A DNA stretch of 64,000 nt from Burkholderiales bacterium (GTDB lineage: Bacteria > Pseudomonadota > Gammaproteobacteria > Burkholderiales > SG8-39): contig JAOSJV010000012.1 of NCBI GenBank assembly GCA_027493935.1, positions 124,001 to 188,000 of the forward strand. Reading direction: 5' to 3'. Below, piece by piece: positions 47,489-49,178 of this stretch; the first letter of the stretch is position 1, and each line of letters begins with the position of its first letter. Position numbers and translations under genes: made by a program. Below the pieces are notes generated by a model. It ran no database searches. It saw only the letters and a program-made list of their open reading frames with translations, and was not told the DNA's origin.

Positions 47489-47593
47489 TCGGGAAGAGCT
47501 CGCGCCATGGCCGGACGCATCGGGTTCGCCGCGAGAAAGGGCGGTCGTACGAACAAGGGGAGCAGTCCCTTGTCTATCCCCCAATCGGCACGA

Positions 47594-47669
47594 GGGGGCG
47601 AGCCCCCGTTGTGCGATTCCCCGGGGCTAGCGTCTCGAGTCAGAGATCCGTCGACGAACTTCTGACTCG
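47594..47669. terminator. Two hairpins downstream of thiolase
   Basis: The first is GGGGGC-GA-GCCCCC (47594-47607). The second has a 9-bp perfect stem CGAGTCAGA / TCTGACTCG (47636-47644 and 47661-47669) with a 16-nt loop. Neither is followed by a T-tract. They lie just before the presumed IS end and are the likely stop for the thiolase transcript. Confidence 0.5.
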
Positions 47670-47724
47670 GGACACTCATATGGTCGCAAGGTTGTCAACA
47701 GTGCGTTTTTTCGTCGAATTCCAA

Positions 47725-47919
47725 ATCGATCCGGTGACGCGGCACGAGCGCTGCAGCGACGATGAATCAGACTCATATCCGTGGGTTGGTTACCACCTTT
47801 CACCGATTCGTCGCGGGAACTGCCTCGCTCTAGCGTCATGGATCAATCCTTGCGGGATGCCGGGGTAGTGTCCTCGAGGGTTTTCCCTATCGTTGCCCGT
47901 ACCGCATCACCGGATCGAT
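47725..47919 (-). ncRNA. Candidate bridge-RNA-type structured RNA of the IS110-family element
   Basis: On the minus strand, 20 nt downstream of the transposase stop, a long helix can form between arms 47898-47919 and 47725-47746. 22 of 22 bases pair, including two G·U wobbles, and 4 further outer pairs (one G·U) extend it to 26 bp (47721-47923). The arms enclose ~151 nt with several short hairpins (AGGG-AAAA-CCCT, GGAT-TG-ATCC, CGCT-AG-AGCG). G·U pairs only make sense as RNA of this strand. IS1111 elements are known to encode their recombination-guiding RNA in this place. The assignment is inference; the pairing is seen. Confidence 0.6.
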
Positions 47920-47939
47920 CTGGTGGTATCGACGTTGGT

Positions 47940-49052
47940 TCAAGCGCGCTCAGGCCTGGTTTGGGTCGAAGCGATGGCCCACACAAAGCCCGTCAGCTCG
48001 CGCGCCACGGCCACGCAGACCTTGTTCAGGTGCACGCCTCTGGCCTTGAGTACCGCGAAGCGTGCGCTCAGTCGCAGCTGCGCCTTCCAGGCCACGTCGC
48101 GAATCGCCTGCGGCAAGTCTTCCGCCCGGCGCTGTGCCTGATAGCCGATACGCGGAGGAAAGCGGTAATTCCATGCCGCCTCGGTGAGCAGCCGACGCGC
48201 GTGCGCATTGCCCGTCTTGGTGATGCTGCCACGCACCACCCGCTCGCCGCTCGAGTGCTCGCTCGGCACCAAGCCAAGATAGCTCATCAGTTGGCGCGGG
48301 TGGGCGAAGCGCGCGATGTCGCCGATCTCGGCCACCAAGCCAATGGCGCTGATCATGTCGATGCCGCGCAGCGCCTGCAGTGCCTGCACGATCGAGGCGA
48401 AGCGCCAGCCTTCGATCGAGCTGCCCAGCGCGGCGGTGAGCCGCGCCACGCGCTCATCTGCTGTGCTGACGGCTTGCCAGTACTCAGTGAAGGCGGTCTG
48501 CGCGCCGGACTGGGCAAAGCTCAACGTCGCCAGCCAACGATAGAACGTCTTGCTCCACGACGTGCGATGCGGGTAACGCACCTCGTGGCGGAGCAGGAAG
48601 CTCTTGAGCTGGTGGCGCGCTTGGGTGCGGGCGTTGACCGCGTCCTCGCGGGCACGCGCCAAGTCACGAATCGCCTCATCGGCCGGGTCGGGAATCCATA
48701 CCGCGCGCAACTCACCGGCACGCGAGAGCTCGGCCAAGCGGATGCCGTCGCGCCGATCGGTCTTGACGCGCTCGCCTGGGCGACGCGGGATCAGCGACGG
48801 GGCGATCACTTCGCAGCGATAACCACGCCGGGCCAGCTCGCGCTGCAGTCCATAACCGGTCGGACCAGCCTCATAGACCACATGAACCTGCGCCGCATCG
48901 CCGAAACGCGCAAACAGCTTCCGAAGCTTGCCGACGTCGTGCGCGATCGTGCCTACGAGGCGCGCCGGCGCCCGCCCTACCTCCGCCACGGCCACCGCGA
49001 TCGAGTCCTTATGCACGTCCAGTCCAACGAAAACTTTGATACCTTGTTCCAT
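47940..49052 (-). CDS. IS110-family transposase (DEDD recombinase)
   Basis: Start MEQGIKVFVGLDVHKDSIAVAVAEVG (49052) rather than the track start at 49094. The N-terminal RuvC-like DEDD domain shows Asp in 'VGLDVHKDS', Glu in 'VVYEAGPTGYGLQ', and Asp/Asp in 'VKTDRRDGIRLAEL'. A coiled linker follows, then the C-terminal Tnp domain 'LRGIDMISAIGLVAEIGDIARFAHPRQLMSYLGLVPSEHSSGE' with the catalytic serine region and 'GNAHARRLLTEAAW'. Full length (370 residues), no disruption, so probably active. SD GGAGA abuts the start within an inverted repeat. Confidence 0.93.
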   Translation of the reverse strand: MEQGIKVFVGLDVHKDSIAVAVAEVGRAPARLVGTIAHDVGKLRKLFARFGDAAQVHVVYEAGPTGYGLQRELARRGYRCEVIAPSLIPRRPGERVKTDRRDGIRLAELSRAGELRAVWIPDPADEAIRDLARAREDAVNARTQARHQLKSFLLRHEVRYPHRTSWSKTFYRWLATLSFAQSGAQTAFTEYWQAVSTADERVARLTAALGSSIEGWRFASIVQALQALRGIDMISAIGLVAEIGDIARFAHPRQLMSYLGLVPSEHSSGERVVRGSITKTGNAHARRLLTEAAWNYRFPPRIGYQAQRRAEDLPQAIRDVAWKAQLRLSARFAVLKARGVHLNKVCVAVARELTGFVWAIASTQTRPERA

Positions 49053-49142
49053 GGCCGGTCTCCATTGTGGTTGCTGACGACTCGTTCTCAGCATGTAGCT
49101 CGGCGCGGCCTGCCGCGCAACCTACGTCGCCGGAGACCGGCC
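49053..49142 (-). promoter_or_regulatory. Inverted repeat that could hide the transposase ribosome-binding site
   Basis: In the transposase leader GGCCGGTCTCC (49132-49142 complement) is followed 68 nt later by GGAGACCGGCC (49053-49063 complement), which touches the ATG. The second arm includes the Shine-Dalgarno GGAGA. The 11-bp perfect stem would hide the start when a transcript includes both arms, limiting transposase made from outside promoters, as known for some other IS families. Confidence 0.5.
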
Positions 49143-49178
49143 GCCTCACCTCAACACGACCATAGTGTCTAGCGCGCC

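What the first reader, a model, noticed from the sequence alone, without database searches (positions are those of the whole stretch)
47721..47923. 26-bp G·U-containing helix closing a ~200-nt RNA directly downstream of an IS110-family transposase: bridge-RNA candidate
Seen: minus-strand arms 47898-47919 and 47725-47746 pair over all 22 positions with two G·U pairs, and four further outer bases (one G·U) extend it to 26 bp. G·U pairs are mismatches in DNA, so the pairing points to selection as RNA. The ~151-nt interior contains short hairpins with unpaired segments. Known: IS110-family elements use a non-coding 'bridge' RNA that pairs with target and donor DNA; in the IS1111 subgroup it lies downstream of the transposase gene, as here. 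Inference: this is that RNA, and the ~150-nt interior holds the target- and donor-binding loops. The long closing stem may be a subgroup feature not described so far.
Basis: partly seen in the sequence, partly recalled or inferred. Interest (0 to 1): 0.85.

Follow-up and report, generated by a model that had tools for sequence, protein, structure and literature searches.

The report
IS1111-type bridge RNA with long stem
A small jumping gene in this bacterium carries its own guide RNA, whose loops spell out both the element's end and the repeat it jumps into; the kind is known, but the long helix that closes the RNA, kept by matched changes in every relative tested, is not mentioned in the papers read.

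Summary
It closes a 145-nt interior inside a 1494-bp IS110-family element (47677-49170, minus strand).

Natural variation in relatives shows that the RNA is a bridge/seek RNA of the IS1111 type. In 31 elements the right target guide complements the cognate right flank (5.7 of 7 positions against 3.3 for swapped pairs; 0 of 100,000 permutations). The left guide tracks the left flank. A donor guide AUAxxAG repeats the element's right end, its xx agreeing wherever both could be read, through six states and at least six switches on the transposase tree. In the window, GGACACUA and CGCUAG spell the target CGCT|AGTGTCC exactly; the element sits at the edge of a REP-like palindrome.

The closing helix is under selection: 27 non-redundant relatives all have it, cognate arms pair far better than swapped ones, and 18 of 29 aligned pairs show double changes. 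It is not confined to this subgroup: IS4321 and IS5075 have a comparable stem. IS1111-type guide RNAs have been known since 2024, so this is a new member of a known kind; the conserved closing helix is the new detail.

The parts
47677..49170 (-). whole IS110-family/IS1111-type element, 1494 bp; left end AGACACTATGGTCG, right end CGACCATATG
   Evidence: near-identical copies elsewhere in the same genome share exactly this stretch; 7-bp left and 3-bp right extensions outside the inverted repeats
47940..49094 (-). transposase gene, 384 aa (relatives align from about residue 12-22)
   Evidence: Pfam Transposase_20 3e-22 and DEDD_Tnp_IS110 2e-16; NCBIfam transpos_IS110 'RNA-guided transposase' 6e-75
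47895..47923 (-). closing helix, 5' arm (29 nt)
   Evidence: fold z -5.97; pair list; covariation
47721..47749 (-). closing helix, 3' arm (29 nt)
   Evidence: as for the 5' arm
47929..47934 (-). additional outer 6-bp helix, 5' side (pairs with 47712-47717)
   Evidence: MFE fold; not tested for conservation
47712..47717 (-). additional outer 6-bp helix, 3' side
   Evidence: MFE fold
47815..47887 (-). target-binding domain: nested stems GGGAA/UUCCC and CCUCG/CGAGG enclosing a large loop
   Evidence: 4 pairs of the inner stem invariant in 15 relatives; fold
47866..47873 (-). right target guide GGACACUA, complementary to TAGTGTCC (all 8 bases of the target T|AGTGTCC)
   Evidence: cognate against swapped flanks in 31 elements: 5.68 against 3.28 of 7, 0/100,000 permutations
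47830..47835 (-). left target guide CGCUAG, identical to the top strand of the target CGCT|AG
   Evidence: two variable positions before TA agree with the left flank in 96% and 60% of 25 elements, against 46% and 22% for swapped ones; 0/20,000 permutations
47756..47814 (-). donor-binding domain GCGACGAAUC...GAUUCAUCGUCGC
   Evidence: conserved stem in 15 relatives
47772..47778 (-). donor guide AUAUGAG, repeats the right end CATATG|AG across the junction
   Evidence: xx of ATAxxAG agrees between RNA and right end in all elements where both could be read, six different states, at least 6 switches on the transposase tree
49157..49163 (-). left subterminal inverted repeat ATGGTCG (8 bp if the preceding T is counted)
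47680..47686 (-). right subterminal inverted repeat CGACCAT
47693..47698 (-). TTGACA, the -35 box of a promoter completed only when the ends join in the circle (-10-like GACACT at 49164-49169, 17-bp spacer)
   Evidence: 28 of 31 relatives place the best -10 match at a spacer of 17 (CATCAT/CATGAT in most)
47629..47676 (-). right part of the target: REP-like palindrome AGTGTCCCGAGTCAGAAGTTCGTCGACGG...
   Evidence: same palindrome at many other places in the genome
49171..49177 (-). left flank of the target, GCGCGCT

Best explanation
The region encodes the bridge (seek) RNA of an IS1111-type insertion sequence. When the element circularises, its joined ends complete a promoter that transcribes the transposase gene and the downstream RNA (inferred). 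The RNA is held shut by a 29-bp helix and carries two half-domains. [quoted passage not shown] In the 3' domain a guide AUAUGAG reads the element's own right end across the junction. The transposase (DEDD plus serine domain) uses these pairings to recombine the circle into the target at the shared AG. Shown here by comparative sequence: element boundaries, guide-target and guide-donor covariation, and conservation of the helix by compensatory change. Inferred from the published IS1111/IS110 work: transcription, protein binding and catalysis. Role of the helix (inferred, open): it holds the two domains together and is long enough to be a host RNase III substrate, which could release the roughly 150-nt 'long seekRNA'.
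For: Transposase family. Boundaries from near-identical genomic copies, subterminal repeats, 7/3-bp extensions. Target guides track flanking DNA in 25-31 elements, permutations 0/100,000 and 0/20,000. Donor guide agrees in all read elements with at least 6 coordinated switches. Exact uninterrupted site CCT|AGTGTCCCGAGTC present elsewhere in the genome. Closing helix in 27 of 27 non-redundant relatives, cognate -54.0 against swapped -30.8 kcal/mol, 0/20,000; RNAalifold finds the same helix unaided; covariation score 0.468 against 0.200 shuffled and at most 0.085 when slid. Junction promoter geometry. Experimentally proven NCR-derived RNA, same position and same guide order, in ISEc11, ISPa11, ISKpn4 (PMC11187229).
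Against: No expression or binding data. The transposase shares only about 24% identity with IS4321/IS5075 in the compared stretch, and no tree with named IS1111 and IS110 references was made. No RNA segment was identified that pairs with the left-end half of the donor. Some relatives (L040, L066) have a poor match between guide and flank. The window's own junction promoter is weak at -10 (3 of 6).
Confidence: 0.95

Rival explanations
1. The 29-bp inverted repeat works as DNA (a hairpin or protein-binding palindrome, or the trace of another insertion), not as RNA.
For: Arms are near-perfect and could extrude as DNA; A-C mismatches are not rare (24 against 47 G-U).
Against: It encloses the guide-bearing RNA at a similar distance in the relatives; G-U exceeds A-C mismatches; the arms are about 150 bp apart, unfavourable for DNA extrusion; the enclosed guides match DNA in the way RNA guides would.
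Confidence: 0.04
2. The region is a regulatory 3' UTR or antisense-type RNA controlling transposase expression, as proposed for Ssr9 of ISPpu9, rather than a guide.
For: ISPpu9, also in REP sequences with an AG repeat, has a downstream sRNA reported as a regulator (PMC8450116).
Against: Target- and donor-matching segments vary in step with flanks and ends, which a regulator would not need. A second role is not excluded.
Confidence: 0.03
3. A variant of the main reading: the RNA is the guide, but the closing helix matters only as a processing site or stabiliser and is dispensable for recombination, the short roughly 80-nt target domain being the working RNA.
For: For ISEc11 an 82-nt RNA was enough and the role of the longer RNA is unknown (PMC11187229). 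The target domain here is 73 nt.
Against: The donor guide, outside that domain, is under clear selection, so the longer RNA is probably used.
Confidence: 0.35

Closest known systems
seekRNA of IS1111-family elements (ISEc11, ISPa11, ISKpn4; Siddiquee et al. 2024, PMC11187229)
   Same: RNA in the non-coding region downstream of the transposase; top-strand complement 5' of the bottom-strand match; subterminal inverted repeats with 7- and 3-bp extensions; promoter at the circle junction; ISPa11 also targets REP sequences
   Different: transposase 384 aa (published range 330-350); the text read does not mention a long closing helix, though the supplementary folds could not be seen
bridge RNA of IS621 and predicted IS1111 bridge RNAs (Durrant et al. 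2024, PMC11208160)
   Same: separate target and donor guides, each read by covariation; core shared by target and donor
   Different: IS621 RNA lies upstream of the gene and begins with a 5' stem-loop; here both domains lie inside one long helix. Figures for ISCARN28, ISAzs32 and ISPa11 could not be viewed
IS4321 / IS5075 (L084, L083)
   Same: downstream RNA closed by a stem of about 30 pairs around a 130-150-nt interior
   Different: stem more interrupted and richer in A-U; transposase about 24% identical; different target (Tn21-type ends, from the literature)
ISSso6 (nearest named relative, 49.6% identity)
   Same: transposase subgroup
   Different: its RNA was not fetched or compared
ISPpu9 with Ssr9 (PMC8450116)
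   Same: IS110-family element at a fixed place in REP sequences with an AG repeat at the ends and a downstream small RNA
   Different: RNA described as a regulator; no sequence comparison made here

Membership tests
IS110 family (DEDD transposases) | RuvC-like DEDD domain plus C-terminal Transposase_20 domain | tested here: met
   Pfam and NCBIfam matches above cut-off; motifs GLDVHKDS, VYEAGP, KTDRRDG, GLVPSEHSSG in the translation
IS1111 group | subterminal inverted repeats of about 7-17 bp | tested here: met
   ATGGTCG/CGACCAT, 7-8 bp here; up to about 11 bp in relatives
IS1111 group | terminal extensions of 7 bp (left) and 3 bp (right), no target duplication | tested here: met
   AGACACT and ATG; target CT|AGTGTCC
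IS1111 group | long non-coding region downstream of the transposase gene | tested here: met
   263 bp between the gene and the right end in the window; same in relatives
IS1111 group | guide order: top-strand complement 5' of bottom-strand match | tested here: met
   GGACACUA at 47866-47873, then CGCUAG at 47830-47835
IS1111 group | transposase branches with IS1111 rather than IS110 references | not tested
   only about 24% identity to IS4321/IS5075; no reference tree was made
IS1111 group | transposase length 330-350 aa | tested here: not met
   384 aa annotated, about 365 aa as aligned with relatives; given in the literature as an observed range, not as a criterion
bridge/seek RNA | segments complementary to both strands of the target, covarying with it | tested here: met
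bridge/seek RNA | donor guide covarying with the element's ends | tested here: met
   right-end half met; left-end half not identified
bridge/seek RNA | RNA is expressed and binds the transposase | not testable with these tools
   needs RNA-seq of the purified complex

The most novel reading that the evidence does not exclude
IS1111-type elements generally make one closed RNA of about 150-200 nt in which a long, selected helix clamps the target domain and the donor domain together, and host RNase III cutting in that helix releases the 'long seekRNA'. The working guide would then be a true two-sided bridge RNA, not only the roughly 80-nt target-reading fragment.
Probability: 0.35. Interest if true: 0.6.

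Novelty: new member of a known kind. Interest (0 to 1): 0.42.

Why it matters
Bridge RNAs are a new route to programmable DNA insertion, and the IS1111 side of the family is far less understood than IS621. This subgroup offers about 30 natural 'reprogrammed' examples from which the target rule (two variable bases, TA|G, then five to six more) and the donor rule (AUAxxAG) can be read, and it points to a conserved closing helix whose role can be tested directly.

Tried and rejected
Rfam search found no family for the region, so known curated RNAs do not explain it. No sigma-70 promoter or intrinsic terminator lies inside the inserted element; the promoter exists only at the joined ends. A first reading of the junction (core GA) was rejected: the 7/3-bp rule and the guide's UA ending place the cut at CT|AG. 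A DNA-palindrome reading was considered and disfavoured. The idea that the long stem is unique to this subgroup was dropped after IS4321/IS5075; across 14 classical-type elements with a usable reading frame the stem score ranged from z -4.8 to +1.7, so it is clear in some and not demonstrable in others. A first attempt to find the stem in classical elements used wrong reading frames for many of them and was redone. The Shigella plasmid hit for ISSso6 was left unfetched on purpose.

Full report
Observation. The described pairing is present as stated and is slightly longer: 29 uninterrupted pairs between 47895-47923 and 47721-47749 with four G-U pairs, plus a 6-bp helix outside. The fold is far more stable than shuffles (z -5.97) and the two-arm duplex more so (z -13.8). 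The 145-nt interior alone is not unusually stable.

Setting. The neighbouring gene (47940-49094, minus strand) is an IS110-family transposase. The same genome (17 contigs, 5.19 Mb) holds another near-complete copy, a partial copy directly behind it, and a copy interrupted by another insertion. Comparing them with the flanks gives an element of 1494 bp, 47677-49170. Its ends carry subterminal inverted repeats ATGGTCG/CGACCAT, a 7-bp extension on the left and 3 bp on the right, the published IS1111 pattern (PMC11187229). The right flank is a REP-like palindrome found at many other places of the genome; one uninterrupted site, CCT|AGTGTCCCGAGTC, has the sequence the RNA predicts.

Relatives. A scan of one genome per species returned 58 loci encoding relatives, most with a complete downstream region. 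The same RNA is recognisable in them: a stem-loop with invariant CCUC/GAGG among the 15 aligned, a donor stem, and a helix closing both.

Closing helix. In 27 loci with less than 80% identical arms, every one forms 26-40 pairs. Cognate arms average -54.0 kcal/mol, swapped arms -30.8, and none of 20,000 permutations reaches the observed sum. On an alignment of 15 members RNAalifold finds the helix without being told. Counted directly, 18 of 29 pairs have changes on both sides, the covariation score is 0.468 against 0.200 in shuffles (0 of 500), and sliding the partner by 1-3 columns destroys it. Relatedness of the sequences is not fully removed by these controls, but the slid versions keep it and fail. 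IS5075 and IS4321, classical IS1111-family elements, have a comparable stem of about 30 pairs around 132-147 nt, so the feature is wider than this subgroup.

Target guides. The eight bases before a conserved UA in the 5' loop are complementary to the DNA just right of each element: mean 5.68 of 7 positions against 3.28 for swapped pairs, 0 of 100,000 permutations; positions 2-5 are right in 84-97%. The two bases before the second conserved UAG agree with the left flank in 96% and 60% of 25 elements, against 46% and 22%. In the window GGACACUA pairs with all of T|AGTGTCC, and CGCUAG repeats CGCT|AG. The order, top-strand complement first, is the IS1111 order (PMC11187229).

Donor guide. AUAxxAG in the 3' domain repeats the right end ATAxx|AG. 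The pair xx takes six states (TG, TC, CG, AG, GG, CC) and agrees in every element where both could be read. On the transposase tree this needs at least six switches, each made in both places. No counterpart for the left end was found.

Expression. TTGAC(A) in the right end and CATCAT/CATGAT in the left end come together with a 17-bp spacer in 28 of 31 relatives when the ends are joined; the window's own -10 is weak (GACACT). Such junction promoters are known for this family (PMC11187229). Transcription would run through the gene into the RNA.

Mechanism and open point. By sequence alone this is a two-sided guide RNA for an IS1111-type recombinase. Published work found that an 82-nt RNA suffices for ISEc11 and left the role of the 145-170-nt form open. 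Here the target domain is 73 nt and the donor guide lies outside it, yet is clearly under selection, which suggests that the longer form is used. A helix of 29 bp is long enough for RNase III, and cutting in it would give an RNA of about the published long size; that step is inference.

Novelty. IS1111 guide RNAs are known since 2024. The texts of the two founding papers mention no long closing helix in IS1111 RNAs, but their figures and supplements could not be read, so it may be drawn there. No solved IS1111-type complex was found: the clear PDB matches are ISCro4 and IS621.

Noticed in passing
window 47629-47677 and L006-L012, L020, L086-L099: A REP-like palindrome (about 49 bp, GAGTGTCCCGAGTCAGAAGTTCGTCGACGGATCTCTGACTCGGGACACTC) occurs at many places; 14 exact copies of AGTGTCCCGAGTC in the genome against 0 for the reversed pattern.
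   Followed up: partly
window about 47541-47583; L013, L017, L018, L019: A second dispersed repeat (GCGGTCGTACGAACAAGGGG...CCCCTTGTCTATCCCCC), in part arranged in series at C1:2124799-2125516.
   Followed up: no
L002 / L133 (C10:208499-210571): A full copy of the element is followed directly at CATATG|AG by the last 568 bp of a second copy, starting inside the transposase gene at AGCGGG; possibly an off-target insertion or recombination at the AG core.
   Followed up: partly
L003 with L005 (C1:809594-812429): A third copy is interrupted near the end of its transposase gene by another insertion of about 1.3 kb.
   Followed up: no
[quoted passage not shown]
   Followed up: no
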